Shown one piece after another: positions 33,149-48,324 of a stretch of DNA of 64,000 nucleotides. The stretch is from NCBI RefSeq assembly GCF_000187245.1, contig NC_027866.1, positions 550,411 to 614,410 on the forward strand, in the 5' to 3' direction. How positions within the stretch are numbered: position 1 is the stretch's first letter; each line of letters opens with the position of its first letter. The stretch is from Ogataea parapolymorpha DL-1. Taxonomy: Eukaryota > Ascomycota > Pichiomycetes > Pichiales > Pichiaceae. The translations under genes and the position numbers were made by a program. The notes beneath the pieces were generated by a model. That model was not told the DNA's origin, did no database searches, and worked only from the letters and a program-made list of their open reading frames with translations.

Positions 33149-33179
33149 TTATTTGGAAATGCAAAATAAAATAAAAAAA

Positions 33180-33188
33180 TATATAAAA
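33180..33188 (+). promoter_or_regulatory. TATA box of HPT1
   Basis: TATATAAAA starts 33 bp before the conserved HPT1 ATG at 33213. Its position supports that ATG over the in-frame ATG at 33159, which lies upstream of the TATA box. Confidence 0.6.
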
Positions 33189-33212
33189 CCTCCAGCTCTT
33201 CTGCCCTCCTGC

Positions 33213-33821
33213 ATGGATAAAAGGTACATCTCGTACAACAATGTGCACCAGCTGTGCCAGCGTGCGGCAGAGACGTTGAAGCCGCTGGACTTGGACTTGA
33301 TGATTGCAATCGGGGGCGGTGGGTTTATCCCAGCACGGATCCTGCGCACGTTTCTCAAGCAGCAGAACCAGCCAAATTTGCGGATTTTTGCCATTGTGCT
33401 GTCGCTGTACGAGGACCTTAACACGGTGTCCACGCAGGAGGAGCAGGCGGGCGCCGAGGTCAAGCGGATCCAGTGGATCAACTACAAGGAGAGCGGCGTC
33501 GATCTTTGCAACAAGAAGATTCTGATTGTCGACGAGGTCGACGACACACGCACCACACTGCACTATGCGCTGCGGGAGCTGCAGAAGGATGCCGCGCGAC
33601 AGGCTCGCGAGAAAGGTTTGGAGGACCCCAACACGCAGTTTTTCGTGTTTGTGCTGCATAACAAGGACAAGCCCAAGAGAGCACAGCTGCCGGCCGAGCT
33701 GATGCGCAGCAACTACGTGGTGGGGGAACAGTTCCCGGACTGCTGGATCGCGTATCCGTGGGAGAGCACCGACATTGTGCACCACCAACAGATGGCTGTG
33801 CAGCAGGGCTACGATATATAG
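33213..33821 (+). CDS. HPT1: Hypoxanthine-guanine phosphoribosyltransferase
   Basis: Hpt1 salvages hypoxanthine and guanine to IMP and GMP using PRPP in the cytosol. The 202-residue protein closely follows yeast Hpt1: YISYNNVHQLCQ at the N-terminus, IAIGGGGFIPARILRTFLK, the PRPP-binding motif ILIVDEVDDTRTTLHYAL and the terminal YPWESTDIV. The catalytic Asp pair of the PRPP loop is intact. An in-frame ATG at 33159 exists, but the protein start MDKRYISYNN at 33213 aligns with the known N-terminus and follows a TATA box. It is convergent with the MCH-like carrier gene, with 19 bp between stops. Confidence 0.95.
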   Translation: MDKRYISYNNVHQLCQRAAETLKPLDLDLMIAIGGGGFIPARILRTFLKQQNQPNLRIFAIVLSLYEDLNTVSTQEEQAGAEVKRIQWINYKESGVDLCNKKILIVDEVDDTRTTLHYALRELQKDAARQAREKGLEDPNTQFFVFVLHNKDKPKRAQLPAELMRSNYVVGEQFPDCWIAYPWESTDIVHHQQMAVQQGYDI

Positions 33822-33840: not shown

Positions 33841-35238
33841 TTACAGTTTGTGGAATCTGCACGAGAACGTGCAGCGCACAGCGCTTTTGATGGGCACGCG
33901 CGCGTGCCAGAGCTGTTCGTCGGTGTGTCCCGGCGTGATCTCCTGTCTGGCGATGAGCCAGCCGCGCAGGATGACGAGCATGACGCCTGCGGCGAAGTAG
34001 CACACGCCGACGAAAATGGCCGCGTTTTGGTACTGTTCTGGCCGCTGCGGGCCGTCTTTTTTCAGTGCTATGCCCAGGATCGGGCTCAGGAACCCAAACA
34101 CGCCGGTAGCCACCCAAGAGAGCGACAGGGCAATGCCCATCTTGCGCAGCCCGATAATGTGCGCCGCCATCGACGGCTGCGTGATCCAGATGGTGCCCAT
34201 GAGGGAGCCCTCGAACAGCGCGAAAATCAGCGCTGTAGGGAAATTGCGGCACGGGATCCACATGGCCAGAGCAAACAGCGCCACAACCCAGCTTGCAAAG
34301 ATGGTCATATTGACCGGGCCGAGAAAGTCGCACAGCTGGCCCATTGTTGGTCGGCCGTAGATGATGCCGATGGATGTCATGGTGGCCACCAAGGACGCCT
34401 TGTTGGCGTTGTAGCCGAGCGACCGTGTAAAGTCGGCCAGATTATACATTAGCGTCACGTAGCCAAACAGCGTGAACATGATCCACGCCAGAAGACACCA
34501 GACGCCAAAGTTCGACCACACAACCTTGTCGTACACTTTGTAGATGGGCTTGATATGTTTGTTGCGCGACTGGATCAACAAGACGGCGACGACGTTGAGA
34601 AAAGCACAGATTATGGCCTGTGTGCGCATCGACCACTGGTAGCCGTACCTGGTGAGCAGGGGCTCCATGCCAATGTTGTACAAAATTCCACCGAGCCCGG
34701 AGCCCGCCGCAGAGAAGCCCAGCGCGAGATTACGCTTGCCACCCTTGCCACTCGAGAACCACTGCGGGATCACGACAACGCTGGGAATCGCAATCAGCGC
34801 AAGCGCAACGCCCTGCCAGACGCCCTGTGTAAGCGCCAGCTGCCAGTACTTGGTGCAGAAGGACGCCAGCAGCATCGACGCGAGCTGGAACGCGATCCCG
34901 ATCGAGATGGTGGGCTTGAGCCCCAGCGTGCCCACGAGATAGTTGATGAGCGGGCCAAAAGTGAGTCCGGCGCCAAACGTGAGCCCGCCCACAACACCGT
35001 ACTCGTACTTGGTGGTGCCGGGAAATACGTCCGAATTGAGGTATTCCTGGTAGTAAAGTGAATAGGCCGAGTTGGCACCCCAGGTATTGAACGAGAATAG
35101 TATGCAACCTACCACGGACGCCAGCCCGCGGCCCTTGAACTTGTTGGGTATGTCGTTGGAAATTTGGGGAGCCCGAATGGGCGTCTCAGACACCTCTAGC
35201 GGGCATTTCGAATCGGTCTGCTCCTCTGTGTCGGCCAT
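33841..35238 (-). CDS. MFS transporter of the monocarboxylate-porter (MCH) family
   Basis: A 465-residue integral membrane protein with twelve predicted membrane segments. The N-terminal cytosolic tail is acidic (MADTEEQTDSKCPLEVSE). Family features include FNTWGANSAYSLYYQEYL in the first span, FTYGPLINYLVG-like FGPLINYLVGTLGL, WFSSGKGGKRNLALGFSAAG between spans 4 and 5 (the RxxAxG element of MCH/MCT carriers) and GRPTMGQLCDFLG. Fungal MCH proteins carry various substrates (riboflavin, carboxylates, others), so the substrate is unknown. The ATG at 35238 is used; upstream codons start at TTG. It shares a 97-bp divergent promoter with the GH76-like gene, suggesting co-regulation in the putative carbon cluster. 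Confidence 0.85.
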   Translation of the reverse strand: MADTEEQTDSKCPLEVSETPIRAPQISNDIPNKFKGRGLASVVGCILFSFNTWGANSAYSLYYQEYLNSDVFPGTTKYEYGVVGGLTFGAGLTFGPLINYLVGTLGLKPTISIGIAFQLASMLLASFCTKYWQLALTQGVWQGVALALIAIPSVVVIPQWFSSGKGGKRNLALGFSAAGSGLGGILYNIGMEPLLTRYGYQWSMRTQAIICAFLNVVAVLLIQSRNKHIKPIYKVYDKVVWSNFGVWCLLAWIMFTLFGYVTLMYNLADFTRSLGYNANKASLVATMTSIGIIYGRPTMGQLCDFLGPVNMTIFASWVVALFALAMWIPCRNFPTALIFALFEGSLMGTIWITQPSMAAHIIGLRKMGIALSLSWVATGVFGFLSPILGIALKKDGPQRPEQYQNAAIFVGVCYFAAGVMLVILRGWLIARQEITPGHTDEQLWHARVPIKSAVRCTFSCRFHKL

Positions 35239-35335
35239 CGGGATTCTTGGCTGAAAAAAAAAAAAATAATATTCTTGGCCGGCTATAACAAAAGCCGAGT
35301 ATGCAGGAGAAATAATTTGGTATTTTTTTATTGCT

Positions 35336-36574
35336 ATGTCCTTTGACAATAATTTGGAAGGCTACAACATCGTCAAGACGTTCTGGCAAACATACTGGAA
35401 CCCCAGCATTGGCAACTTCTCGACCCGCGTGCCATGCAAAGAGTCGCGCGAGGGCCGGTTCTCGTGCTGGACCATGGGCGTCGTGCTCCACGCCGTGGCC
35501 GAGTGCTGCGCCGCGTACAAGGATCTCACGCTGCCGATCGTCGCGCCCACGGTGTCTGCGCTGACGTGCTACCGCAATCCCAAGTACGGCGCGTACTCGG
35601 TGATGTACCACGGCGCACAAAACTCGGGCGACGACGATATTAACTACGACGACTGCGCCCACCTGCTGCGTGGCATGATTGCTCTGTACGAGGCCACGGG
35701 CAACCAGGAATATTTGGACCTATCACGCGAGCTGGCGCGGTTTCTGATGACGGGCGTGGTCGAGCACCAGAAGTTCCACGTGCCGGGGCTCAAGTGGCAC
35801 ATCTCGCGCAAGTACATGGCCACCATCTCGAACTGCGTGGCTGCGACGGGCGCCATGCGGATGATCAAATACTCGTCGCCGGAGGAGCAGAAACAGCTGT
35901 ACAACTTCGCCAAGCTGTGCATCAACTTCATTGAGCAGATCCTCTGGGACAAATCCGACAATGTCGTGATGGACGGTGTGGCGTACGATTCGGACGTGAT
36001 CGACAAAACCAAGTGGTCTTACAACACGGGCAACACGCTCTCGGCAATCTGCATGCTGTACCAGTACGATAGAGACCCGCAATGGGTCGACAAGGCCCGC
36101 AAACTCGCCGAGGCCGCTACCGACCGCGGCCGCACGCTGTTCGACAGAGACTACGACGACTGGAACAAACGGTTCTGGCATGGGCCTTCCTACTTCATCC
36201 AGCTGCTCGTCGAGGGCCTTGTGGACTACCTGGTGACCTTTGGGAACGATGCCCCGGAAAGCACGCGCCGCTGCTGCGAGAACGAGATCCTGCGCCACGT
36301 GTCGTACTTCAGAAAATACATGTACGACCCGAGCGACGGGCTGTATTTCTGCTCGTTCGACATCTACCGGCTGGACGACCGCACGTACGAGCGGTACCGC
36401 ACGGAATTTGGCGGACACAAGACGTTCCAGCCCAATGAGGACGACCGCGTGCAGGCTGGAGGAGACCCGAAAAAACGGCCTGTGTGCAAGAGCCTCATGG
36501 CTTCCGCTGCTGCCGCACGCATCTTCTTCCAGGCCGCTCGTATTTTCCCGAAAATGGACCCAGTTCCTGTATAG
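35336..36574 (+). CDS. GH76-like six-hairpin glycosidase without a signal peptide
   Basis: A 412-residue protein with the repeated helical-hairpin pattern of (alpha/alpha)6 glycosidases. The segment GDDDINYDDCAHLLRGMIAL (about residues 97-116) has the adjacent aspartates expected at the GH76 active site. It is followed by LYEATGNQEYLDLSRELARF, ATISNCVAATGAMRMI, WSYNTGNTLSAICMLYQ and FWHGPSYFIQLLVEGLVDY. GH76 enzymes (alpha-1,6-mannanases, Dfg5/Dcw1) are normally secreted; this one has no signal peptide, membrane segment or GPI tail, so it should be cytosolic and act on imported or internal sugar derivatives. The family assignment is by eye; another six-hairpin family (for example unsaturated-uronyl hydrolases) is possible. 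Confidence 0.55.
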   Translation: MSFDNNLEGYNIVKTFWQTYWNPSIGNFSTRVPCKESREGRFSCWTMGVVLHAVAECCAAYKDLTLPIVAPTVSALTCYRNPKYGAYSVMYHGAQNSGDDDINYDDCAHLLRGMIALYEATGNQEYLDLSRELARFLMTGVVEHQKFHVPGLKWHISRKYMATISNCVAATGAMRMIKYSSPEEQKQLYNFAKLCINFIEQILWDKSDNVVMDGVAYDSDVIDKTKWSYNTGNTLSAICMLYQYDRDPQWVDKARKLAEAATDRGRTLFDRDYDDWNKRFWHGPSYFIQLLVEGLVDYLVTFGNDAPESTRRCCENEILRHVSYFRKYMYDPSDGLYFCSFDIYRLDDRTYERYRTEFGGHKTFQPNEDDRVQAGGDPKKRPVCKSLMASAAAARIFFQAARIFPKMDPVPV

Positions 36575-36615
36575 CAATGGACAATTCTTACCAATGGACA
36601 TTTTCTCACCAATGG
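36575..36615. repeat. Three tandem near-repeats around CAATGG (two full CCAAT boxes)
   Basis: CAATGG begins at 36575, 36592 and 36610, in units of 17-18 bp with similar TTCT/TTTT spacers. The second and third copies are preceded by C, giving CCAAT boxes. They follow the stop of the GH76-like gene directly and lie in the promoter of the regulator gene at 36761. Confidence 0.7.
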
Positions 36616-36660
36616 GCTTTTGTTAGTGTAGTAGGTACACCATGTCGGCGTTGCTACCAT

Positions 36661-36690
36661 CTCCGTCCCCCTGTGTACGGGTGTGCGGAG
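36661..36690. promoter_or_regulatory. CTCCG/CGGAG inverted repeat upstream of the regulator gene
   Basis: CTCCG (36661-36665) and CGGAG (36686-36690) form an everted CCG-N20-CGG pair. A second pair, CCCCG (36701-36705) and CGGGG (36722-36726), lies downstream. Such paired CGG triplets are typical targets of Zn2Cys6 dimers, so autoregulation by the gene at 36761 is possible. Function is inferred. Confidence 0.3.
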
Positions 36691-36760
36691 TCGGCCAGTT
36701 CCCCGTGCATGAAAAAAAAGTCGGGGTACAGATTTATCTTTTTTTAATTCTATTTCGTCA

Positions 36761-38485
36761 ATGTTCCCCAAAGATCCTCTTCTCCTGCCAGAGCCCCGGC
36801 GCCGCGTTAAGACGGGCTGTCTGACCTGCCGCCGCAAACATAAAAAATGCGACGAGGCAAAGCCCGTGTGCGGGTTCTGCACGCGCCGCCGCTTTGAGTG
36901 CGTATGGCCGTCGCGCGCAAGCACTTTCCATCTGATGGTCCCTGGCGACGAGCGTCCGACAAAAGTCCCCGCCACGCCGGACCTCCAGCCGATCGAGGCC
37001 AAGCCGGTTGCCAAGCCGGCGGTCAGCAGCAGTTTCTGCGACCTCAAGTCGCTGTTGAACGAGGTCAAGCCGGTCGCGGTGCCCATCACGCCCTCATCGG
37101 ACGAGAGCGTGCGGGATCGGCCGTGGGCGTTTGAACGCAACGAAGTGTCGGGCGTGAGCCCTGACTACGCCAACTTGCGCGAGACCTTGCGCGACTACAT
37201 GTTTCTCAACGCCATGACCACGAGCCCGTCCACGCCGGCGAATTTGTCGGGCAACATTTTCGAAAACGACCTGTCCCTCGACGACCAGCTGCTCAACCTC
37301 ACAAAGGGAATCAACGCGTTCCACGATGGGCTGGAGTTTGGCCACGGCCCCGCCGACAACGATATCCTTTCGCCCGAGGAAAATCTGCTGTTGCTGACGC
37401 GCTACGTCAACGATATCGGCCCCTGGCTCGACATGTTCGACCACAGGAGCTGTTTCACCGCGCTGCTCTCAAAAACGGCCAAAGACGACCCGCTTATGTG
37501 TGCGATTCTGACTATTTCCAGCCGTCAGCGCGACAAGCTCCAGCACGACAGGCCTGTCTCGGAAACCACGTACCGGCTGTACGAGCGGTCGCTCACATAC
37601 CTAATTCCGAAAGTAAAAAAAGTGCCCGACACTAGCGTGATGGCATCGTGCGTGATACTGTGCTGCTTCGAGATGATGTCATCGGACCCGAGCGAAACGT
37701 GGACGAAGCATCTAAAGGGCTGTGCCGCGCTGTTCAGAGTGGCAGACTTGCACGGATTTTCGGGGGGCCTGCGGCAGGCGGTGTTCTGGTGTTTTATTCG
37801 CATGGACGTGATGCACGCCATTTCGCACAAGACGGCGACGCTGATCCCGTGCGAGAACTGGTTGCCGCGCAACTGCACGGTGCAGCACGCGCGCGCGCTG
37901 TTTTTGGACTCCAAGTTCGACGGCAACGAGTCGCGCGACATGTACGCCAACTACATGGTCTTTCTGCTTGCCCGCGTGTGTCGGCTCGTTTACTCGGGCA
38001 ACCTCAAGCAGGACGACTTCGAGTCCGAGTGGATCGAGCTGTACACGGAGCTTGACCGCTGGTGGCAGGACCGCCCCTCTGAGATGCATCCCGTCGTGAG
38101 CGTGTTTAAAGACGGCACGCCGTTCCCGAGCATCCTGTTCTGCGTGGCCCCGGCCATCTCGGGCACGCAGATGTTCCACACCGCCATGATCCTGCTTATG
38201 AAGTACAAGACGCGCATCCTGCGCCCGCTGCCCACGCTCGCCGTGGACCCCGTCATGCGCAAGAGCCTCATCTGGCACGCCAAGTGCGTCGTCGGCATCA
38301 GCCTGTCCAACTCGGACCACGGCTGTCTCAACAACGCGCTGCAACCGCTCTGGGTAGCGGGCAAGCTCATGAGCAGCAAGGAGGAGCAGCACATCATCGT
38401 CCAGCTGCTGCGCGACATCGAAAATACCACTGGCTGGTCCACCAGCTGGCGTATCCGCGACCTACAGGAACATTGGAGTTATTAG
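36761..38485 (+). CDS. Zn2Cys6 transcription factor, candidate cluster regulator
   Basis: A 574-residue fungal zinc-cluster protein. Residues 20-47 form the binuclear cluster, with cysteines at 20, 23, 30, 37, 40 and 47 (GCLTCRRKHKKCDEAKPVCG), preceded by the basic PRRRVKTG. The remainder (about 190-560) resembles the fungal transcription-factor domain, with LTRYVNDIGPWLDMFDHRSC, LTISSRQRDKL and CCFEMMSSDPSETWTKHLKG typical of this architecture. No dimerising coiled coil is obvious after the cluster. The gene lies between the GH76-like and transketolase-like genes, and CGG inverted repeats occur in nearby promoters, so a pathway-specific activator role is proposed. Its stop is 20 bp from that of the convergent transketolase-like gene. 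Confidence 0.85.
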   Translation: MFPKDPLLLPEPRRRVKTGCLTCRRKHKKCDEAKPVCGFCTRRRFECVWPSRASTFHLMVPGDERPTKVPATPDLQPIEAKPVAKPAVSSSFCDLKSLLNEVKPVAVPITPSSDESVRDRPWAFERNEVSGVSPDYANLRETLRDYMFLNAMTTSPSTPANLSGNIFENDLSLDDQLLNLTKGINAFHDGLEFGHGPADNDILSPEENLLLLTRYVNDIGPWLDMFDHRSCFTALLSKTAKDDPLMCAILTISSRQRDKLQHDRPVSETTYRLYERSLTYLIPKVKKVPDTSVMASCVILCCFEMMSSDPSETWTKHLKGCAALFRVADLHGFSGGLRQAVFWCFIRMDVMHAISHKTATLIPCENWLPRNCTVQHARALFLDSKFDGNESRDMYANYMVFLLARVCRLVYSGNLKQDDFESEWIELYTELDRWWQDRPSEMHPVVSVFKDGTPFPSILFCVAPAISGTQMFHTAMILLMKYKTRILRPLPTLAVDPVMRKSLIWHAKCVVGISLSNSDHGCLNNALQPLWVAGKLMSSKEEQHIIVQLLRDIENTTGWSTSWRIRDLQEHWSY

Positions 38486-38505
38486 CACCAATTAATTTCA
38501 GCTAT

Positions 38506-40575
38506 TTAGTTCAAATCCTCGAAATACCATAATTTTTCTGGAGTTGCCGAACGGAAATACTTCTCCACCCGGTCTGCCACCCGGTGCGGCGAGAACCCAA
38601 AGTACTCGTACGCAGCCTGGCCGGGCAGCGACTTGCCAAACGTGCGCATGCTGTAGCCCGCCGTCGCGTACCGCTCCCAGCCGTTCACAGCGTAGCTTTC
38701 CACCACCACGGACGGAATCTTGCCGCGCAGCAGCACGCTCTGCTTGTACTCGGCGCTCTGCCGCTCAAACAGCTGTGTGCACGGGAAGCTGACCACTCTG
38801 GTCCGGATACCGCGTCCGGCCAATTCCTCGGCCGCTTTCAGGGCCAATTGCAGGTCAGAGCCCGTTGCCAGTAGCTGCAACTGTGGCTCGGCCTCCGGCT
38901 TCACCACGTAGGCCCCCAGGGCAACCTTGTCACGGGCAGTGACGCCCAGCTGCGGCAGAGCCTGACGTGACAGCGAGATGAGGCTCGGTCCATGCTTAAA
39001 GTCCATGGCAGCTTCCCAAGCACCGGCGGTCTCCTCAGAATCTGCCGGCCGCAAAAACAACGAGTTCGGCAGCGCACGGTAAAATGCCGGCAGCGCGATC
39101 GGCTGGTGAGTTGGCCCGTCCTCGCCCGTACCGATCGAGTCGTGTGTGGCGACGTGGATTGTCTGTAGCTCCTGCAGAGCGCCCATCCGCACGGCGGGAG
39201 CAGCGTACAGGTAGAACATCAGGAAAGTGGACGTGACCGGAACAAACGTGCCTCTGTTGTAGGCGGCAAGCCCGTTGGCAATCGCTGCCATCGCGTGCTC
39301 ACGGATACCGTAGTGGATGTAGCGGCCCGAATAGTCGCCGCCCAAACCGCACTTGGTCTGCAGCTGGGGTTTTTGGAAGTCGCGAGCGCCAGGCCAGCTC
39401 ACGTGCACAGACGGCGTCAAATCGGCCGTGCCGGCGATAATGGAGTCGATGGCTTTGGCGAGCGGCGCAAAAACGAGACCGCTGCTCTTTCTAGTTGGTG
39501 TTGGACCGGAAGGGAATTCTGTTGGAATGTGTTTTTTCCAGTCGGCGGGCAGCTTGCCCGCCACGCGGCGCGCAAATTCGGCCGCCAGCTCAGGATACTG
39601 CTCCGTGTACTTGGCCACCTTTTCTTCCCACAGCCGCTCGCTGTGCTGGCCGCGCGGAACGCAGTCGCTGAAGAACTCGTACACCTCTTGCGGGACGTGG
39701 AAGCGCAGGTCTGGGTCCAGGCCGTTCTTCAGCTTGAGCTGTCTCACGTTTTCCTCTCCGAGCGCTGCGCCGTGCGCTGATGCCTCGCCCTGGTTGAGCG
39801 CGCCGTAGCCGATGACGGTATGGACGTTGATCAACACAGGCCGGTCGGTGATCTGCTTGGCGCGGTCGATGGCGCCCACAATGGCCTCGACGTCCTCAGA
39901 GCCGTTGGCCACGTCGAGCACTGCCCACTGGCACGCCCGAAATTTGGCCGCCACGTCCTCCGTGTTAGCCACGTCGGCGCTGCCGTCGCACGTGACCTGA
40001 TTATTGTCGTAGAGCACGATCAAGTTGCCGAGACCAAGATGGCCTGCGAGCGAAATGGCCTCGAGCCCAACGCCTTCCTGCAGGCACGCATCGCCGACAA
40101 TACAGAAGATGGAGTTGTCCACCACGTCGTAGCCCGGTCTGTTGTACAAAGCGGCGAGATTTTTCGACGCAATGGAGAGGCCGACAGCGTTGGCAATGCC
40201 CTGGCCGAGCGGACCAGTTGTGACTTCAATGCCTGGGTGCTCAATCTCGGGATGGCCCGGACAGTATGAGTCTGGGCGGTCCGAGTGGTACGTTTTCAGC
40301 TGCTCCATGGTCATGTGCTTGTAGCCCGACAGGTGCAGGAACACGTATTGGAACAAGCACGTGTGGCCGTTGGAGAGCACGAAACGGTCTCTATTGAAGA
40401 AATCTGGGTTGCTTGGAGAGTAGTTCATGGTGTATTTCCACAAAGCCACACCCATAGCGGCCATGCCCATGGCGCCGCCGGGATGGCCGCCCCCATAGTG
40501 CTGGACGAGGTCTGCAATGAGGCAGCGGAAACTGCTGAGCACGAGCTGGTGTGTCTGAGAGTTGTCGGTCGTCAT
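38506..40575 (-). CDS. Transketolase of dihydroxyacetone-synthase type, without PTS1
   Basis: A 689-residue thiamine-diphosphate enzyme. It follows peroxisomal dihydroxyacetone synthase (DAS) more closely than Tkl1: QHYGGGHPGGAMGMAAMGVA, FNRDRFVLSNGHTCLFQY, GPLGQGIANAVGLSIASKNL, the TPP loop IVGDACLQEG, YDNNQVTCDG (transketolases usually read YDDN), YSGRYIHYGIREHAM with the catalytic Glu, and HDSIGTGEDGPTHQPIA. DAS transfers the two-carbon unit of xylulose 5-phosphate to formaldehyde. Known DAS proteins end in an NKL/DKL-type peroxisomal signal; this one ends FEDLN, so it should be cytosolic. Either a DAS paralog retargeted to the cytosol or a sugar-specialised transketolase is plausible; acceptor specificity cannot be read from the sequence. 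Confidence 0.85.
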   Translation of the reverse strand: MTTDNSQTHQLVLSSFRCLIADLVQHYGGGHPGGAMGMAAMGVALWKYTMNYSPSNPDFFNRDRFVLSNGHTCLFQYVFLHLSGYKHMTMEQLKTYHSDRPDSYCPGHPEIEHPGIEVTTGPLGQGIANAVGLSIASKNLAALYNRPGYDVVDNSIFCIVGDACLQEGVGLEAISLAGHLGLGNLIVLYDNNQVTCDGSADVANTEDVAAKFRACQWAVLDVANGSEDVEAIVGAIDRAKQITDRPVLINVHTVIGYGALNQGEASAHGAALGEENVRQLKLKNGLDPDLRFHVPQEVYEFFSDCVPRGQHSERLWEEKVAKYTEQYPELAAEFARRVAGKLPADWKKHIPTEFPSGPTPTRKSSGLVFAPLAKAIDSIIAGTADLTPSVHVSWPGARDFQKPQLQTKCGLGGDYSGRYIHYGIREHAMAAIANGLAAYNRGTFVPVTSTFLMFYLYAAPAVRMGALQELQTIHVATHDSIGTGEDGPTHQPIALPAFYRALPNSLFLRPADSEETAGAWEAAMDFKHGPSLISLSRQALPQLGVTARDKVALGAYVVKPEAEPQLQLLATGSDLQLALKAAEELAGRGIRTRVVSFPCTQLFERQSAEYKQSVLLRGKIPSVVVESYAVNGWERYATAGYSMRTFGKSLPGQAAYEYFGFSPHRVADRVEKYFRSATPEKLWYFEDLN

Positions 40576-40697
40576 TGGCGTTCCAGCAGGCCAGATCGGT
40601 GCTATTTATCTGGGGTCCTCGTTGCGCTCGAAATTTCCCAATCTGGAAAGCTACGCGAGTTTTAAAAAAATTGCGGCAGATATTGCTAAGCTTAAAC

Positions 40698-42224
40698 TTA
40701 CACACCTGACTCCACCATCTCGACCTCCGCTTTCTCGGCGGCCTTGTCGGCAACAAGCGCAAAGTCGTCTTCGAGCGCGTCGTTCCAGAACAAGTGGACC
40801 TTCTCCCCCACAAACATGCGGTCGATTTTCTCGAGCGGGAGGTTTTTCGTTTCTGGGTAGAAGAAATAAATCATCGGCACAAAGCAGAAATTGAACACGC
40901 AGAAGTAGATGTACGTCTTGTAACCGATGTTGGAGACGCTCGACGGCGTGATCTCAACGACCAAAAACGTGAAAATCCAGTTGCTGGCAGAGCCCAGCGC
41001 CGCAGCCTTCGTACGGATCGCCAAAGGCGCGTACTCTGCTGGGAGCAGCCAAGGAATAGCAAGCAGACCAACGGCGAAAAAGAAGTTGAACATAAACAGC
41101 ATAATCGTGGCGACTATTCCGGACGCCGTGTTGCCGTTCGAGACCGTGCCGGCCAGAATCGCCATACACGAGCCCTGTCCGATCACGGCAAAAAGCATCA
41201 GCTTGCGGCGGCCGATTCTATCGAGCAACCAAATCGGGAGCAGCGACGAGAAAAAGTACGCAATTCCGTTGAACCCTGACATCAGCAGCGCCAAGTTGTG
41301 GTCCATACCAACGGACTCCTCAAAGATGCTCGTGGCGTAGTACGTAATCAGGTTGATTCCCGACAGCTGCTGCATGAATTGCGAAAACATGCCCAAAAAG
41401 GTACGCCAGAAAAAGCGCTGCGGTCCGTTGGTGAAGACGGCGGCGAAGCCGACATTCGCAGACTGGCGTTCTTCGGCAAGTGCCTCGTTGATCAGCTCGA
41501 TTTCGTGCACCACACTTGGGTCGTCGTCGGTTATCTGCTCAGCGTTATGCATCGTCAGATGGATCACCTGTTTGGCCTCTGCATGGCGGTCGTGGGCAAT
41601 CAGCCACCGTGGCGACTCCGGCAAGAACATCACTCCTGCGAGCGTGAAGAGCGCAAACACAATCTGCAACGAGATCGGGAACCGGAACTGGGCCTCGCTG
41701 TCGACATAACTCATGCCGTAGTCAACCCAGTATGACGTCATAACTCCAAAAATGTTGATCGCCAGCTCGATCGACAGCTCGCGGCCTCTGTTGTGGGCTT
41801 TACAGATTTCCGAGTGCCAGACAGGAATCGTGGCCGTGTTCATGCCGTTTCCCAGCCCGGCGACAATCCGTCCCACAATCAATTGTGCAACGCCGTACGC
41901 AGAGGTTTGGATTGCGGCTCCCACAGACAGGGTCAGGCACCCGATCATGATACTCCAGCGTCTTCCAAGCCGCTCTCCAAACGCGAAGCTAAACAGTGCG
42001 CCAAAGAAACAGCCAATCTCGTAGATGGCCACCACGGTGCCCTGCAGCGATGAGCTGCCGTGGCCTGTGGCCGTCGTGTCAATCGCCGGGAACTGGTGCG
42101 TGAACGCGGCACCCGTCAGCAGGCCCGACATCACGCCCTGATCAAATCCAAAGAGCAGGAATCCTGCACCAGAGGCAATGGTGACTCCCCATTGCAAGTT
42201 GCGGCCTTTCAATCCAAGATACAT
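40698..42224 (-). CDS. MFS sugar/polyol transporter, STL1-like
   Basis: A 508-residue sugar-porter family protein with twelve membrane spans. The start MYLGLKGRNLQWGVTIASGA and GFLLFGFDQGVMSGLL match the STL1-like glycerol/sugar proton symporters. Other sugar-porter signatures are GERLGRRWSIMIG (GRR between spans 2 and 3), FLPESPRWLIAHDRHAEA (PESPRWL), FSQFMQQLSGINLITYYATS and FFYPETKNLPLEKIDRMF (PETKxxxLE). The substrate may be a polyol, pentose or hexose. The ATG at 42224 is used, since the longer frame starts at TTG. It is divergent from the SDR gene across 195 bp containing CGG repeats, and 122 bp downstream lies the transketolase-like gene on the same strand. Confidence 0.88.
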   Translation of the reverse strand: MYLGLKGRNLQWGVTIASGAGFLLFGFDQGVMSGLLTGAAFTHQFPAIDTTATGHGSSSLQGTVVAIYEIGCFFGALFSFAFGERLGRRWSIMIGCLTLSVGAAIQTSAYGVAQLIVGRIVAGLGNGMNTATIPVWHSEICKAHNRGRELSIELAINIFGVMTSYWVDYGMSYVDSEAQFRFPISLQIVFALFTLAGVMFLPESPRWLIAHDRHAEAKQVIHLTMHNAEQITDDDPSVVHEIELINEALAEERQSANVGFAAVFTNGPQRFFWRTFLGMFSQFMQQLSGINLITYYATSIFEESVGMDHNLALLMSGFNGIAYFFSSLLPIWLLDRIGRRKLMLFAVIGQGSCMAILAGTVSNGNTASGIVATIMLFMFNFFFAVGLLAIPWLLPAEYAPLAIRTKAAALGSASNWIFTFLVVEITPSSVSNIGYKTYIYFCVFNFCFVPMIYFFYPETKNLPLEKIDRMFVGEKVHLFWNDALEDDFALVADKAAEKAEVEMVESGV

Positions 42225-42340
42225 TCTTGGAAGCAACAGGGCTTTCAGCCGTCCATTTATACCAAGACTGCGTGTAATGCGGGGTGCATGCGTTAGATTT
42301 ACGGCTATTGTTTGATTTGGAAAAATTAGGCGGCCCCACA

Positions 42341-42355
42341 ATGCGGCCCCCGCAT
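42341..42355. promoter_or_regulatory. CGG-N3-CCG palindrome in the transporter/SDR divergent promoter
   Basis: ATGCGG-CCC-CCGCAT is a perfect inverted repeat of CGG triplets. GCGGCCCC also occurs as a direct repeat at 42330-42337 and 42343-42350, and ATGCGGGG (42277-42284) is the inverse of CCCCGCAT (42348-42355). The arrangement suits binding by a Zn2Cys6 dimer, possibly the product at 36761-38485; this is inference. Confidence 0.45.
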
Positions 42356-42382
42356 CGATTACCGCTATTGTAAATTGGGGCT

Positions 42383-42390
42383 TATAAATA
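42383..42390 (+). promoter_or_regulatory. TATA box of the SDR gene
   Basis: TATAAATA starts 37 bp before the SDR ATG at 42420 and follows the CGG repeat block, a standard arrangement for a regulated promoter. Confidence 0.5.
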
Positions 42391-42419
42391 CAGCACTAGC
42401 TTGCTCTTGGTGCAGCACC

Positions 42420-43286
42420 ATGACGTACAAGTCCTATAATCCTCTCGCCACTATCACCGATCCTGCTCCCGCCTCGCCGTCCTCCATTAAAGCGGGCCTG
42501 GATCTGAAAAACAGGACCTACTTTGTCACCGGCGGCGCCCGTGGCCTCGGCTTGAGCCTTATCACTGCCATTTTAGAGGCCGGCGGCAGCGCAGTGGCTC
42601 TGGACCTGCTGCCAGAGCCCCTCACCGAAGAGTGGGCCGCTGCACAGGCGCTCGCCAAGGAAAACGGCGGGTCTCTCTCGTTCAACACGCTCGACGTCAC
42701 CAGTGAGCCGGCCGTGGAGTTGCTGCTACCCCGGCTCGCTCAGGAGGCCGCCCAAGCAGGCAGACCGGTTCACGGCCTGGTGAACTGCGCCGGCATCAAC
42801 CAGAAGCTGCCAGCTATCGACTACCCCGTCGAGCTGTACCGGAAAATCGTTGATATCAACTTTGTGGGCTCGTTCATCATGGCCAAGCACACGGCCAAGA
42901 TTCTTGTAGCAGAACGGACGCCAGGCTCGATCGTCCTGATTGGGTCGATGTCCGGCATTATCGCGAACCGTGGGCTTGAAAATACGGCGTACAACACGTC
43001 CAAGGCCGCCGTGCTGCAGCTCGCGCGGTCATTGTGCCAGGAATGGGGCCAGTACGGTATCCGTATCAACACCATCTCGCCGGGTTATATTATAACTGCC
43101 ATGACCCAGGAGCTGCTGGACGTGGAACCCGAGCTGTACGAGACGTGGATGCGCGGTGCAATGCTTAACCGCCTGGGCGCTCCCGACGACTTCAAGACGG
43201 CCGCCGTGTTTCTGCTCGGCGACGGGTCGCGGTTCATGACCGGCTCTGACCTTAGAATTGACGGCGGCCACTGTGCTGGTGCATAA
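42420..43286 (+). CDS. Short-chain dehydrogenase, polyol/ketose (arabinitol 2-dehydrogenase or SOU1) type
   Basis: A 288-residue classical SDR that should interconvert a polyol and a ketose with NAD(P)H. Visible motifs are the cofactor loop TGGARGLGLS, an aspartate at the end of strand 2 (VALDLLPE), which favours NAD, NCAGIN, the catalytic serine in IGSMSG, the YNTSK catalytic pair and the C-terminal GSDLRIDGGHCAG. The N-terminal extension MTYKSYNPLATITDPAPASP resembles that of yeast D-arabinitol 2-dehydrogenase and sorbose reductases. The ATG at 42420 follows a TATA box; the open frame upstream starts at TTG. Divergent arrangement with the STL1-like transporter supports uptake and oxidation of the same sugar alcohol. 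Confidence 0.82.
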   Translation: MTYKSYNPLATITDPAPASPSSIKAGLDLKNRTYFVTGGARGLGLSLITAILEAGGSAVALDLLPEPLTEEWAAAQALAKENGGSLSFNTLDVTSEPAVELLLPRLAQEAAQAGRPVHGLVNCAGINQKLPAIDYPVELYRKIVDINFVGSFIMAKHTAKILVAERTPGSIVLIGSMSGIIANRGLENTAYNTSKAAVLQLARSLCQEWGQYGIRINTISPGYIITAMTQELLDVEPELYETWMRGAMLNRLGAPDDFKTAAVFLLGDGSRFMTGSDLRIDGGHCAGA

Positions 43287-43346: not shown

Positions 43347-44357
43347 ATGTCTTGGCTCGATGTCCACCTCGAGCTGGTCTTCTGGTCGATTCTCGGCTTC
43401 ATGGCCCGGGAAGGACTCACCAAACTTACTTTCTACTCAAATTCCTACATCAACCCGAACTACAAGCTGTCGGGCTCGTGCATCTGGTCGAATTTCACCG
43501 CCTGTCTGTTGATCGCTCTAGTTAACCAGTACGACCAGGGCTGGCAAACGCTTCTCCCGGACGAGAAAACACAGACAAAAAAAGCGCTCGTGGTCTACAC
43601 AGCCCTCACCACAGGCTTTATTGGCAGTTTCTCAAGTTTCTCGGCCCTGGTCATGGAAATACTCGCCAAAACACTGGATATTCTCAACGTACACAACAAG
43701 TTGCCCAACCACGGCTACGGAGTTATGGAGTTTTTCTCCGTTATTTTCACTCAAATGGGTGTCTCCATGATTGGCTACCATTTGGGCTCTGATCTCGCTT
43801 CTTTCCTCACCAGGTTCGGCGACTCATGGGGACTTGGCCATAAAAAGTTTATCAAAGTGGTGCATAATTTTGAGCTGCTGACCATGGTGCTCGGAGTTAT
43901 TGTGTGGATCGTCAACCTCGTGCTCTGCTGCACTTTGCACAACCACCATTTCTGGAAGAAATCGTGGTCGTTCGGCATCGTCTTCGCCCCCTTCGGCTGC
44001 TTCGGCCGCTACCATCTCGCAAAACTCAACGCTCGCTCCTGGTTCCCCATCGGCACCTTTATTACCAACGTCACTGCATCTATTCTCCTCGCAATAATTT
44101 ATGTTCTAATACACGGACAAACAAGCACGGGGGCGCCTCTGGTCACCGACCAACTACAGCTTGACGTGCTAGTTGCCCTGGGAACAGGTTTCTGCGGTGT
44201 GTACAGCACGCTGAGCACGTTTGTCAACGAGATCGTGGCACTTAAAAACGAAATTCGCCGCGCTGTATACTACACCGCCAGTCTTGTGGTTTCATTCCTC
44301 ACCATGATGCTCATCCTGGGCTGCTACAGCTGGACAAAAGGGATCTCCGCCAATTAG
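43347..44357 (+). CDS. FEX1: Plasma-membrane fluoride export protein
   Basis: Fex proteins are constitutive fluoride channels that keep cytosolic fluoride low. The 336-residue membrane protein is a fused duplicate of two CrcB/Fluc domains, as in other fungi: repeat one has FMAREGLTKLTFYSNSYINP and TALTTGFIGSFSSFSALVME, and repeat two has FAPFGCFGRYHLAKLNAR and LGTGFCGVYSTLSTFVNE. The conserved Asn, Phe and Ser/Thr residues of the fluoride pathway are in these segments. The gene lies at the right end of the sugar cluster but is a general defence gene. Its stop codon overlaps that of the convergent D-amino-acid oxidase gene by 4 bp. Confidence 0.92.
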   Translation: MSWLDVHLELVFWSILGFMAREGLTKLTFYSNSYINPNYKLSGSCIWSNFTACLLIALVNQYDQGWQTLLPDEKTQTKKALVVYTALTTGFIGSFSSFSALVMEILAKTLDILNVHNKLPNHGYGVMEFFSVIFTQMGVSMIGYHLGSDLASFLTRFGDSWGLGHKKFIKVVHNFELLTMVLGVIVWIVNLVLCCTLHNHHFWKKSWSFGIVFAPFGCFGRYHLAKLNARSWFPIGTFITNVTASILLAIIYVLIHGQTSTGAPLVTDQLQLDVLVALGTGFCGVYSTLSTFVNEIVALKNEIRRAVYYTASLVVSFLTMMLILGCYSWTKGISAN

Positions 44358-45408
44358 AGCTTGTGCTCGCGCAAAAACGACTCCACTAGCATAACCGTCT
44401 TCATGGCCATTCCGTGCGAATTCTGGTATCCAGCACCTGCGGCGCCGTAGTTGTGCACCACGCGGCCAACGCCAGGAATAACCTCCTTCTCAATTCGCGG
44501 CCCGCCTTTTCTGCCCGGTCTCAGGCCACAGTGCACCTTGACGACGTCCAAGTCGCCGTGCTCAAAAAGTTCCGGACAGTACTGGCGTGCACGGGCCACA
44601 GTCCGCTCAAATAGACCTTCATCCACGTCCGGCGTCCAGTCGTTCACGCGGAAACAACCGCCAATGATCGTGCCGCCTTCTTTCCTTGGGAAAATGTACA
44701 ATAATTCGTCCTTGCTGGCACCAGGAATGTTCTTGACGGAAAGCATGTACGGACAGCTATTCCGCGCATGGATCACCTGGCCCTTAATCGGGAACACGTC
44801 CTGGTCCATCACGCCTCCCAGCTTGCTGGAGAGCAGGCCAGAGCAATTCACAGTCACATCAACTTTGCCGTCGGTGAAATAGCTGGCGGCGTCTTTGATG
44901 TGGTGTAAATGTGCTCTGTGCAACTTAACACCCAGACTTAATAACTTCTGCAATAGATAGTGCAAATAGATTGGCACCGTGATTGCCACGGTGGTGTACT
45001 CGTGGCCGTATTCGACTCCGTCCGGTAGCTCCTCTTTGGAAAGAAGCCGGAAATCCTGCACAAAGTCTTTGAACCACGGCAGCCGTTTGGAGTTGAGAAT
45101 CCGCTCCGTGCGTCTCACCACACTTGAGCCGGGAACGTTCTCGGCCAGGTCCATAAACCGGTAATAACCAAGTTTGTCCCATTCCTTCATCTCATAGTCC
45201 CCGTCCTGCGCGAAGCTTGACCAATTGGCGCCTGCAAAAGGACTGGTATACTCGACGTCGACGTCGCCCGGCAGATGACGAGCCACAATCTGGACATTGT
45301 GGCCTCTTTGTGCGAGTTCCAAGGCTGTGGTCATTCCAACCACGCCGCAACTGGCTGGTTAGCTGGGCCCAACAGTGGTACGTACCCTATAACTATGATT
45401 TTCGCCAT
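44354..45408 (-). CDS. D-amino-acid oxidase, spliced (two exons)
   Basis: A FAD enzyme that oxidises D-amino acids to 2-oxo acids, ammonia and H2O2, normally in peroxisomes. Exon 1 is 45386-45408 and exon 2 is 44354-45350. Joining them restores the FAD Rossmann motif VIGCGVVGMTTAL; the unspliced frame stops. Further features are GANWSSFAQDGD, WFKDFVQDFR, VNCSGLLSSKLGG, PIKGQVIHARN and the C-terminal signature VVHNYGAAGAGYQNSHGMA. The 339-residue product ends EHKL; HKL is a weak PTS1 variant and would direct it to peroxisomes. The gene is divergent from a secreted ureohydrolase, with GATA sites between, which suggests control by nitrogen supply. Confidence 0.9.
45351..45385 (-). other. 35-nt intron of the D-amino-acid oxidase gene
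   Basis: The intron starts GTACGT and ends GCTAACCAGCCAG, giving 8 nt from the branch A to the acceptor. Use of the nearer CAG would break the frame. Its removal creates the conserved GxGxxG motif. Confidence 0.85.
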
Positions 45409-45687: not shown

Positions 45688-46980
45688 ATGCTTTTCTCTC
45701 TTTTCCTGAGCGTCCATGCGCTTGCGGCACATGTGAGACTGGACCAGATTCCCGTCCAAGGCTCTATAGATGTGCCTTCTGCCCTCGTTAAAAAATACGA
45801 GGACACCAAAATCAAGTTTCTCGAGGACTACTATAAAGTAGACCAGGAAAACGCTCTCGTTTTTTCCTCCGACGTCCAACTTCCTGACGACCTGGCCTAT
45901 ATTGCGTCTCAGCAGATCAAGTACAGAGATCCCGATGACACGTCCGACCTGTATCCCGGCAAAAGCGACAGATACAACGGCATTTCGCAGGCAGGATACC
46001 TGACCTACGGACATCTTCCAATGGAGCAGCACTGTTTTGATCCAGAAAAGCTGGCCGACTTGGAGCTCGACATTGTTGTTCTTGGCGCTCCTTTTGACAC
46101 CGGAATCTCGTACAAGCCGGGCTCGCGGTTTGGACCAGACGCTATTAGACAGGGTACGAGAAAGTTTGCTCCGGCATATTCTCCATACAGAGAAGGATTA
46201 AACGTGTGGAATAACTGGGCCAAAATAGTGGACTGCGGCAACGTTCCGATGACGCCCTTGGACAACAGAGTTGCTCTTGACCAGTTATACCGGTCCGAAA
46301 GAGCTATTCTCAACCATTCGACCACAAAAGCCAATCCTGGAAAATATCCCCGGTTTCTGGCTCTGGGAGGCGACCATACCATCAGTTACTCGGGAATTCG
46401 TGCTGCTCACGAGAAATTCGGCAAAGTCAGCGTTCTGCATTTCGATGCTCATCTTGACACCGTCAATCCGTACTACATGAACCCAAATGTCACCGAGTAT
46501 GCTGCGCTGAACCATGGCACGTATTTATACTGGGCTCACAGAAAAGGCTGGACTGCTGACAACAATATCCACGCCGGACTGAGAGGATGGTACGAGGACA
46601 GAGGAGACCCTAGCCGCGATTACTCGGAGTCGAAGTTCGCCAAGATCATGGCCCGGGACGTGGACAAAATAGGTGTCCAGGGAATAATTGACAAAATTAA
46701 GGAAAGACTGGGCAACTCGCCAGTGTACATTAGCTTTGACATTGATGTTCTAGATCCTCCGTCTGCCCCGGGCACGGGATCTCTTGAGCCAGGCGGATGG
46801 TCTTCCAGAGAGCTACTCGAGATTATTGACGGTTTGGCGGGCCTTTACGTTGTTGGTGCCGACGTGACGGAAGTTTCTCCATGGGGCGATTCTACGAACG
46901 ACGTTACCTCCATCATGGCCGGAGAGGTTGCCCGGTCGATTCTGGGACTGATGGTTCTAACCCCGGAATTGAAGGAGTAA
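45688..46980 (+). CDS. Secreted ureohydrolase of the agmatinase/guanidinobutyrase type
   Basis: A 430-residue protein of the arginase superfamily, which hydrolyses a guanidino compound to urea and an amine using two Mn2+ ions. All metal ligand motifs are present: LALGGDHTISYSG (His), LHFDAHLDT (Asp-His-Asp) and YISFDIDVLDPPSAPGTG (Asp-Asp). SLEPGGWSSRELLEIIDGL and VVGADVTEVSPWGD also fit agmatinases. Residues 1-14 (MLFSLFLSVHALAA) form a short but convincing signal peptide, so secretion or vacuolar delivery is expected; several N-glycosylation sequons occur. Substrates could be agmatine or 4-guanidinobutyrate. Divergence from D-amino-acid oxidase suggests a nitrogen-scavenging pair. Confidence 0.85.
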   Translation: MLFSLFLSVHALAAHVRLDQIPVQGSIDVPSALVKKYEDTKIKFLEDYYKVDQENALVFSSDVQLPDDLAYIASQQIKYRDPDDTSDLYPGKSDRYNGISQAGYLTYGHLPMEQHCFDPEKLADLELDIVVLGAPFDTGISYKPGSRFGPDAIRQGTRKFAPAYSPYREGLNVWNNWAKIVDCGNVPMTPLDNRVALDQLYRSERAILNHSTTKANPGKYPRFLALGGDHTISYSGIRAAHEKFGKVSVLHFDAHLDTVNPYYMNPNVTEYAALNHGTYLYWAHRKGWTADNNIHAGLRGWYEDRGDPSRDYSESKFAKIMARDVDKIGVQGIIDKIKERLGNSPVYISFDIDVLDPPSAPGTGSLEPGGWSSRELLEIIDGLAGLYVVGADVTEVSPWGDSTNDVTSIMAGEVARSILGLMVLTPELKE

Positions 46981-47316
46981 ATAGATCCTGGTATAGCTGG
47001 GACACGAAGATGTTGCTCGTTCTGTTATATAGACCAAGAACCTAGATTGATCTTAAGATGAGATTGTGGAGTTGGTTGCAATGGGGTAAAAAGCACCTTT
47101 TGAAATACAACTAAATCGTGCGAATTGTCATACTTGTAGCACAGTACTTGTTAAATTATGTTAGAATCGAGATCTTACGAGGCTAGATAATTTAAACTAA
47201 GGTTGCTTTCACGTTCCAATCCAGTGCAGAAAAATGGCTGTTACAATCTCACTCAAGAAAAGCAGTTCACTTCCTTTGCAAGAACGCCCGTCAACTCACG
47301 TAGCCAAGAGTTTCTG

Positions 47317-47326
47317 GTCACGTGAC
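47317..47326. promoter_or_regulatory. Cbf1/E-box palindrome GTCACGTGAC
   Basis: A perfect 10-bp palindrome around CACGTG, the optimal site for Cbf1-type bHLH proteins. It lies 185 bp before a TATA element, but no gene is evident downstream on the plus strand. Confidence 0.45.
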
Positions 47327-47414
47327 ATGGACGAACGATTCGTGCTCTGGAAACTGCGTGCTGAAGGAGGCTGTATGTTGGGATAGTCGTGTCAGCTCTG
47401 TGTTTTGTAGAGGA

Positions 47415-47501
47415 TACAATGTGTTGGAAATCAGCAGGAAGGTCCCGAAAGAGTCGGATTCTTGCGATGAAATTAAAAATGGTTATAGTTTAAAATTCTG
47501 G
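47415..47501 (+). pseudogene. Possible J-domain relic
   Basis: The plus-strand translation contains YNVLEISRK, a short insertion, then DEIKNGYSLKFW. It resembles helix I-II of a J-domain and specifically the start of the J-protein 1.6 kb downstream ([23 protein letters not shown]). No HPD follows, and the surrounding frame (start only at GTG) has no other J-protein sequence. It may be a decayed tandem duplicate or a chance resemblance. Confidence 0.3.
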
Positions 47502-47790
47502 ACCGTTACTTATATAAGGGTTGAACAAATTGACCAGTATGGGTTACAAAATAAATGATGCCATTTATTAGTCGCTACACAAGAAGGCAGCAGAAGAGGG
47601 CATTGGAATGCTCATAACCAGAGCTAAACTGGGTGCGAACGGTGTGAACTGTATGAAGACTGATGTTGAATCGGTAAATCAACTTCTATTTGACTTCTAT
47701 ATTATCCTGAATATGTCTGCAGCGGTAGACTGACCGATCGATGAAAAGTTTGTACCAGAAATGTCAGCCTAAACTTTCCATGTGCTCGGT

Positions 47791-48324
47791 TCATAGTACT
47801 TTGTCGGAATGGAGGGCCTCACGGGATTTGATGAACTCACTTAGCTCCTCCCTCAACCAATGGGCTTCCTTTTCCATCACTTCCATAGATCTTGGTTTGC
47901 GGTCCTCGTCCCTGGCGACCTGCATTTTCTTCAGGGCAATCTGGAAGAAGCTATTGAGATCCTGTTCGTGCGACTCCAACAGTTCATAAATTCCATCTCC
48001 GTAACCATCGTTCAAATACCGTGGAATTATGTGGGTGTGCACATGGGGCACGGACTGTCCCGCTGCAACGCCGTCTTGCATGGCCAGATTCAGGGAGTCG
48101 GCCTTGTACACTTTCTCAATAAAGCTATGGATCAGCTGCACAGTCATGATATAGTCCACGCTTTCTTCAGGCGAGAGATCTTTGAGTCGTGGAACCACTC
48201 TCAGAGGAACGACCAGCACATGTCCAGGGACAATGGGTTTGAGGTTGACCAAGGCATAGGTGAATTTGGATTTGTAGAACACTTGGCTTGTGACGGGGAA
48301 TTTATAGAAGAAGATCTTCGACAT
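47791..48324 (-). CDS. HNT2: HIT-family diadenosine polyphosphate hydrolase (Ap3A hydrolase type)
   Basis: This Fhit-type enzyme cleaves Ap3A and related dinucleotides. The 177-residue protein has the expected fold: FPVTSQVFYKSKFTYALVNL, PIVPGHVLVVPLRVV, NLAMQDGVAAGQSVPHVHTH and the histidine triad HVHTHII, with the nucleophilic central histidine. The C-terminal part (RKPRSMEVMEKEAHWLREEL) matches the extension seen in yeast Hnt2. The ATG at 48324 aligns with the family start. The genes on both sides are separated from it by gene-poor DNA. Confidence 0.9.
   Translation of the reverse strand: MSKIFFYKFPVTSQVFYKSKFTYALVNLKPIVPGHVLVVPLRVVPRLKDLSPEESVDYIMTVQLIHSFIEKVYKADSLNLAMQDGVAAGQSVPHVHTHIIPRYLNDGYGDGIYELLESHEQDLNSFFQIALKKMQVARDEDRKPRSMEVMEKEAHWLREELSEFIKSREALHSDKVL

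What the first reader, a model, noticed from the sequence alone, without database searches (positions are those of the whole stretch)
33841..43286. Candidate carbon-utilisation gene cluster with its own zinc-cluster regulator
Six adjacent genes encode two MFS carriers (MCH type and STL1 type), a GH76-like glycosidase, a Zn2Cys6 factor, a DAS-like transketolase and a polyol-dehydrogenase-like SDR. Two pairs are divergent over short promoters (97 and 195 bp), and CGG inverted repeats occur in promoters. Together they could import a sugar, sugar alcohol or glycoside, oxidise it to a ketose and feed it to a transketolase. No sugar kinase is in the cluster, so a trans-acting one would be needed. 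I do not know this set as a described yeast cluster.
Basis: inference. Interest (0 to 1): 0.8.

Follow-up and report, generated by a model that had tools for sequence, protein, structure and literature searches.

The report
Carbon-use cluster akin to methanol module
Six neighbouring genes in a methanol-eating yeast look like a small nutrient-use cluster, and two of them, the regulator and a transketolase, are relatives of the neighbouring pair that controls and performs a key step of methanol use, which hints at where that pair came from.

Summary
The six genes are real and at the stated coordinates. Linkage is kept in Ogataea philodendri by locus tags of three of the six genes; two of these lie on different contigs in Kuraishia. 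MPP1 sits 524 bp from DAS1 here, so 'regulator plus Das-type enzyme' occurs twice. The third factor of this clade lies among a sugar porter, an SDR, an arabinitol/sorbitol-type dehydrogenase and a dihydroxyacetone kinase. The window transketolase lacks a peroxisomal tag and keeps Asp477, Asn in DAS1. The glycosidase has a GH76 fold and the catalytic Asp pair but no signal peptide. Best reading: an NAD-linked sugar-alcohol/ketose cluster, sister to MPP1-DAS1. Substrate unknown; expression not testable here.

The parts
33841..35238 (-). MFS carrier, monocarboxylate-porter-like (MCH label recalled), 465 aa
   Evidence: ORF; PF07690 85.7 bits; four paralogs at 27-31% in the genome over most of the length
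35239..35335 (.). 97-bp divergent promoter with CGGCT-N8-AGCCG at 35280
   Evidence: p 0.13; 13 genomic sites against 14 reversed control
35336..36574 (+). GH76-fold protein, 412 aa, no signal peptide, D105/D106 kept
36761..38485 (+). Mpp1-family Zn2Cys6 / Fungal_trans_2 regulator, 574 aa
38506..40575 (-). Das-family transketolase, 689 aa, no PTS1, Asp477 kept
40698..42224 (-). Sugar-porter MFS (STL1 label recalled), 508 aa
42225..42419 (.). 195-bp divergent promoter STL/SDR
   Evidence: 2 CGG/CCG pairs, shuffle mean 1.5
42420..43286 (+). SDR, 288 aa, Asp after beta-2 (NAD-type by recalled rule), Ser-Tyr-Lys present; relatives named D-arabinitol 2-dehydrogenase

Best explanation
The six genes form a small catabolic cluster for a sugar alcohol or related ketose or aldonate. 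The sugar-porter MFS brings it in; the NAD-type SDR oxidises it to a ketose; an unlinked kinase phosphorylates the ketose; and the cytosolic Das-family transketolase, behaving as an ordinary transketolase on sugar phosphates, moves it into the pentose-phosphate pathway. The GH76-fold protein would release the sugar or polyol from an imported alpha-glycoside, and the MCH-like carrier would move an acidic by-product. The Mpp1-family Zn2Cys6 factor is the pathway switch. The TF-transketolase pair is paralogous to the MPP1-DAS1 pair of methanol assimilation, so both probably descend from one 'regulator plus Das-type transketolase' linkage. SHOWN: gene identities, adjacency, TF clade, TK kinship, intact catalytic residues, lack of PTS1 and of a hydrophobic N-terminus on the GH76 protein. 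INFERRED: regulation by the TF, direction of flux, substrate class, roles of GH76 and MCH, order of the duplication events.
For: TF: the window TF has only two paralogs in the genome that match beyond the zinc-cluster region; the three form a clade at 98/98 and 100/100 after correcting one comparison frame, among 25 Fungal_trans_2 factors. One lies 524 bp from DAS1 (L012) and fits Mpp1 (684 aa; zinc finger aa 29-73 and homology up to aa 683 in PMC4813576, passages); PMC12054124 (passages) says MPP1 lies 3.4 kb downstream of DAS1 in C. boidinii, similar to O. polymorpha. The other lies at C2:28-42k with GH3, dihydroxyacetone kinase, sugar porter, SDR and an L-arabinitol/sorbitol-dehydrogenase-like enzyme. 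TK: 55% to DAS1, 45% to TKL1. Linkage in O. philodendri by tag numbers. Chance that a TF paralog lands beside another TK gene: about 8 in 5,300 (2 TF paralogs x 2 other TKs x 2 sides; gene number from '4652 genes ... more than 87%' in PMC3866509); a post hoc estimate of mine. SDR relatives named D-arabinitol 2-dehydrogenase, with solved polyol, gluconate and galactitol dehydrogenases as the three best PDB matches.
Against: The window STL and SDR are not the specific sisters of those in the C2 module, so the modules are not simple whole-cluster copies. TF and TK are convergent here but tandem at MPP1-DAS1. Promoters share no demonstrable site. GH76 and TK lie on different contigs in Kuraishia. 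DAS1's place relative to this TK clade is unresolved (p-AU 0.2 for DAS1 grouping with TKL1 outside it). GH76-like proteins occur in yeasts where no linkage is known, so the gene may not belong to the pathway. No expression data could be read (reading of supplements was capped at zero).
Confidence: 0.45

Rival explanations
1. Loose neighbourhood: genes with separate jobs that happen to lie together, or a partial cluster (TF-TK-STL-SDR) beside unrelated GH76 and MCH genes.
For: Promoter spacing and CGG pairs mostly ordinary; GH76 and TK unlinked in Kuraishia; SDR near sugar-porter genes recurs in this genome (for example C1:262.7-266.3k and C1:904.9-908.8k), so such pairs are not rare.
Against: Conserved order in O. 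philodendri over 73-82% identity; TF paralogs beside DAS1 and beside polyol genes.
Confidence: 0.2
2. Accessory methanol module: the Mpp1-like factor and Das-type transketolase act during growth on methanol, for example regenerating xylulose 5-phosphate in the cytosol.
For: TF is a paralog of Mpp1 with 28 of 37 zinc-cluster residues identical; TK nearest to DAS1 of the two other TKs; [quoted passage not shown]
Against: Relatives of this transketolase are widespread in Pezizomycotina and other yeasts, most of which are not methylotrophs (recalled); no PTS1; SDR, GH76 and carriers have no place in methanol use.
Confidence: 0.15
3. Alpha-mannoside (or other alpha-glycoside) scavenging: the GH76 protein is the key enzyme and cleaves an imported small mannoside in the cytosol; SDR and TK handle the aglycone or sugar.
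For: GH76 fold and DD pair intact in 34 of 34 aligned proteins, nearest to alpha-1,6-mannanases; no hydrophobic N-terminus.
Against: Sugar porters of this class mostly carry monomers or polyols (recalled); GH76-like genes occur in species without the SDR among the hits listed.
Confidence: 0.15

Closest known systems
MPP1-DAS1 locus of methylotrophic yeasts (Mpp1/Mit1 regulator beside dihydroxyacetone synthase)
   Same: Zn2Cys6 regulator of one clade (100/100) beside a transketolase of the Das family; zinc cluster 28 of 37 residues identical.
   Different: Window TK has no PTS1 and keeps Asp477; genes convergent, not tandem; extra GH76, SDR and two carriers; no known methanol role.
C2:28-42k module in the same genome (GH3, DAK, sugar-porter MFS, Mpp1-family TF, SDR, arabinitol/sorbitol-DH-like enzyme, MFS)
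   Same: Mpp1-family TF, the nearest sister of the window TF (97/85), with a sugar-porter MFS and an SDR as neighbours.
   Different: No transketolase; its MFS and SDR are not the specific sisters of those in the window; has DAK and a zinc-type polyol dehydrogenase.
Ogataea MAL cluster
   Same: Non-telomeric carbon-use cluster with permease, hydrolase and putative activators (PMC6070925, start of abstract in search listing).
   Different: Different enzymes; regulator families not compared here.
GH76 subfamilies Dfg5 and Fungi/Bacteria-mixed (CtGH76)
   Same: (alpha/alpha)6 fold and DD motif (PMC12295086, section 5 and passages).
   Different: No signal peptide or anchor seen; [quoted passage not shown] The paper's Asco2 subfamily was not compared.

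Membership tests
Glycoside hydrolase family 76 | Pfam GH76 model above curated cut-off | tested here: met
   93.7 bits against 25.9
Glycoside hydrolase family 76 | (alpha/alpha)6 barrel nearest to GH76 structures | tested here: met
Glycoside hydrolase family 76 | adjacent catalytic Asp-Asp | tested here: met
   D105/D106 invariant in 34 of 34 aligned (window plus 33 of 36 hits; P0024, P0025, P0036 left out); motif role per PMC12295086
Glycoside hydrolase family 76 | alpha-mannan hydrolysis or transglycosylation | not testable with these tools
   needs an assay
Dfg5 / Fungi-Bacteria-mixed GH76 subfamilies | signal peptide, with anchor (Dfg5) or for secretion (F/B-mixed) | tested here: not met
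   Best N-terminal 15-residue hydropathy -0.15 against 1.88 and 1.77 for the genome's two Dfg5-type proteins; 33 of 36 hits are also at or under 1.6 (a simple hydropathy scan, not a dedicated predictor)
Dihydroxyacetone synthase (Das) | sequence closer to Das1 than to Tkl1 | tested here: met
   55% against 45%
Dihydroxyacetone synthase (Das) | peroxisomal targeting signal type 1 | tested here: not met
   ends DLN; DAS1 ends NKL
Dihydroxyacetone synthase (Das) | formaldehyde as acceptor | not testable with these tools
   Asp477 kept, Asn in DAS1: suggestive only
Transketolase | cofactor- and substrate-binding residues (yeast numbering H30, H69, H103, H263, R359, D382, S386, E418, H469, D477, H481, R528; roles recalled) | tested here: met
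   all 12 present; R94 is His, as in DAS1
Mpp1/Mit1 regulators | Zn2Cys6 plus Fungal_trans_2 and one clade with Mpp1 | tested here: met
   the tree holds own-genome factors only
Mpp1/Mit1 regulators | methanol-induced activator of methanol genes | not testable with these tools
   expression tables are in supplements that could not be read
Yeast carbon-utilisation gene cluster | linkage conserved in related genomes | tested here: inconclusive
   kept in O. philodendri by tags of three of six genes; two of them on different contigs in Kuraishia
Yeast carbon-utilisation gene cluster | co-regulation by the local factor | not testable with these tools
   motif scan mostly at background; no expression data

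The most novel reading that the evidence does not exclude
This cluster is a surviving sister of the unit from which yeast methanol assimilation was built. An ancestral sugar/polyol regulon of 'Mpp1-type factor + Das-type transketolase (with DAK, polyol dehydrogenases and permease in its circle)' duplicated; one copy became MPP1-DAS1 by gaining a PTS1, changing Asp477 to Asn and switching to methanol induction, while this copy kept the cytosolic transketolase and its original substrate.
Probability: 0.3. Interest if true: 0.75.

Novelty: new variant of a known kind. Interest (0 to 1): 0.5.

Why it matters
How yeasts acquired methanol growth is an open question; DAS is held to have arisen from transketolase (PMC8709784, passage). 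A linked, non-peroxisomal paralog of both the enzyme and its regulator in the same genome gives a direct comparison: same regulator family, same enzyme family, different compartment, different active-site residue, presumably different inducer. It also offers a candidate inducible cluster in an industrial host, and a signal-less GH76 group in yeasts.

Tried and rejected
Shared promoter motif: no word of 7 or 8 bases other than A/T runs occurs in three or more of the four intergenic regions, and CGGCT-N8-AGCCG is not enriched. Epimerase (AGE) identity for the GH76-like gene: lower structural scores than GH76 mannanases and the GH76 Asp pair is invariant; not excluded by Dfg5, which scores in the same range as epimerases. 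Horizontal transfer of the SDR from Pezizomycotina: of the 120 listed hits (530 passed the threshold) two named rows are other Ogataea and one is Dipodascopsis, nearly all the rest of the named ones filamentous fungi, but in trees the Ogataea SDRs sit on a long branch of unresolved position: inconclusive. Whole-cluster duplication with the C2 module: rejected for STL and SDR. DAS1 arising inside the window-TK clade: not decided (p-AU 0.2). Direct cleavage of an unphosphorylated ketose by the transketolase, which would explain the missing kinase: disfavoured because R359, S386, H469 and R528 are kept (phosphate-binding role recalled). Expression: the 2013 genome paper's tables S4, S9 and S10 would help but supplements were not readable.

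Errors of mine corrected: in the TF tree one comparison row (L032) was a wrong reading frame; rebuilt it and the clade rose from 98/98 to 100/100. In one search one SDR row (C1_263k_a) was not an SDR; rebuilt the tree without it, but there my filter also dropped C1_882k and one of the two C1_263k proteins.
Full report
What is there. The window lies at C1:550411-614410 of an 8.87-Mb, seven-contig genome. Its proteins are 96-99% identical to Ogataea angusta and O. polymorpha records, and the genome resembles the 9-Mbp H. polymorpha DL1 (PMC3866509, start of abstract and passages). Flanks: a gene with no Pfam hit at 33159-33821, and CrcB-like, DAO-like and arginase-like genes downstream.

What is ordinary. 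Both divergent gaps fall inside the range of the 10 divergent gaps of this window, and CGG/CCG inverted pairs exceed shuffles in one of four intergenic regions only, upstream of the regulator. The transketolase promoter has none. A perfect CGGCT-N8-AGCCG lies between the MCH and GH76 genes, but that pattern is not enriched in the genome.

Linkage elsewhere. In O. philodendri, GH76, TK and SDR carry tags 001381, 001378 and 001375 on a contig of 349,763 bases, at 81%, 73% and 82% identity: the span of seven tags fits the same block with up to two more genes. In Kuraishia capsulata, GH76 (50%) and TK (67%) are on contigs of different length. Only three of six genes were searched, and the listings give no positions, so this is linkage by tag number, not mapped synteny.

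Regulator. The window TF matches only two other places in the genome beyond its zinc-cluster region: C2:36-38k and C2:131-133k (reciprocal with the latter as query). Among the 25 Fungal_trans_2 factors found, the three form one clade at 98/98 and 100/100 after a frame correction; the window TF is nearest to the C2:36k factor (97/85). The factor at C2:130884-132938 is 684 aa, lies 524 bp from the DAS1 ORF, and fits published Mpp1 in zinc-finger position and length (PMC4813576 passages). Published gene order agrees: MPP1 lies downstream of DAS1 in C. boidinii, similar to O. polymorpha (PMC12054124 passages). Mpp1 is induced 40-fold on methanol in DL1 (PMC3866509 section 15). Calling this ORF MPP1 is therefore inference, but strong.

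Transketolase. The genome has three. The window enzyme is 55% identical to DAS1 and 45% to TKL1. Sixteen active-site positions were read by alignment (yeast numbering): the window enzyme equals TKL1 in 15, with His instead of Arg at 94 as in DAS1; DAS1 differs from TKL1 also at 473, 477 and 529. All 120 listed relatives of the window enzyme keep Asp477; this list holds the nearest relatives only and no annotated peroxisomal DAS was among those I examined, so the contrast rests on one DAS sequence. The window enzyme ends DLN, DAS1 ends NKL. The relatives span Ogataea, Kuraishia, C. boidinii, Lipomyces, Trichomonascus and many Pezizomycotina, many of them named dihydroxyacetone synthase by automatic annotation. 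Where DAS1 attaches is unresolved.

Third relative. C2:28294-41946 holds GH3, dihydroxyacetone kinase, sugar-porter MFS, the Mpp1-family TF, SDR, an enzyme nearest to L-arabinitol 4-dehydrogenase and sorbitol dehydrogenase, and another MFS. The kinase is one of two in the genome. This neighbourhood is what makes sugar alcohols the leading guess. But its MFS pairs with C7:1.9k and its SDR with C3:7k rather than with the window genes, so only TF (three loci) and TK/DAS (two loci) are shared by descent.

SDR. Best solved relatives: a putative polyol dehydrogenase, a gluconate 5-dehydrogenase and a galactitol dehydrogenase. Outside Ogataea its listed relatives are almost wholly filamentous fungi, several named D-arabinitol 2-dehydrogenase by annotation. 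An Asp follows beta-2 (ALDLLP), which by recalled rule favours NAD and fits oxidation.

GH76. The protein is a divergent member: 93.5 bits against 510 and 496 for the genome's two others. Of its 36 hits, the top 31 (32-96% identity) include named budding yeasts and unnamed environmental sequences; the last five are remote (21-31%). The model (pLDDT 96.2) matches GH76 mannanases best. D105/D106 are invariant in 34 aligned rows. No hydrophobic N-terminus. A 2025 survey says yeasts lack the secreted F/B-mixed subfamily (PMC12295086 section 5), so a signal-less GH76 group in Pichiales-type yeasts looks undescribed there; its Asco2 subfamily was not compared.

Mechanism and confidence. Import, NAD-linked oxidation, kinase in trans, transketolase entry to the pentose-phosphate pathway, under an Mpp1-family switch: 0.45 as a whole. 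That the TF is a Mpp1 paralog and the TK a DAS-family enzyme I hold at about 0.95; that the two neighbour pairs share descent as a linkage, about 0.6. Literature: no paper found describes this cluster or a linked Mpp1/DAS paralog pair (open-access library only, mostly listings).

Noticed in passing
44354-45408 (-): The D-amino-acid-oxidase-like ORF (44354-45334) probably begins at 45408 with a short first exon and one small intron, restoring a GxGxxG motif; it ends HKL, a possible peroxisomal tag.
   Followed up: partly
G000:C2:28294-41946 (L007, L011): Polyol-type module with a dihydroxyacetone kinase and a paralog of the window regulator.
   Followed up: partly
35336-36574 and proteins P0001-P0031: Signal-less GH76 group in budding yeasts, with two copies in [Candida] arabinofermentans (P0003, P0004).
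   Followed up: partly
33841-35238 (-): The MCH-like carrier ends in HKL, which reads like a PTS1 but is probably coincidence in a membrane carrier.
   Followed up: no
45688-46980 (+): Arginase-family (agmatinase-like) protein with a hydrophobic N-terminus suggesting secretion.
   Followed up: no
46981-49093: 2.1-kb stretch between two main ORFs, the longest gap between the main ORFs I picked in the window.
   Followed up: no
G000:C2:25221-28169 (L007:221-3169): Fused hydantoinase/oxoprolinase and S-Me-THD-like protein beside the C2 module.
   Followed up: no
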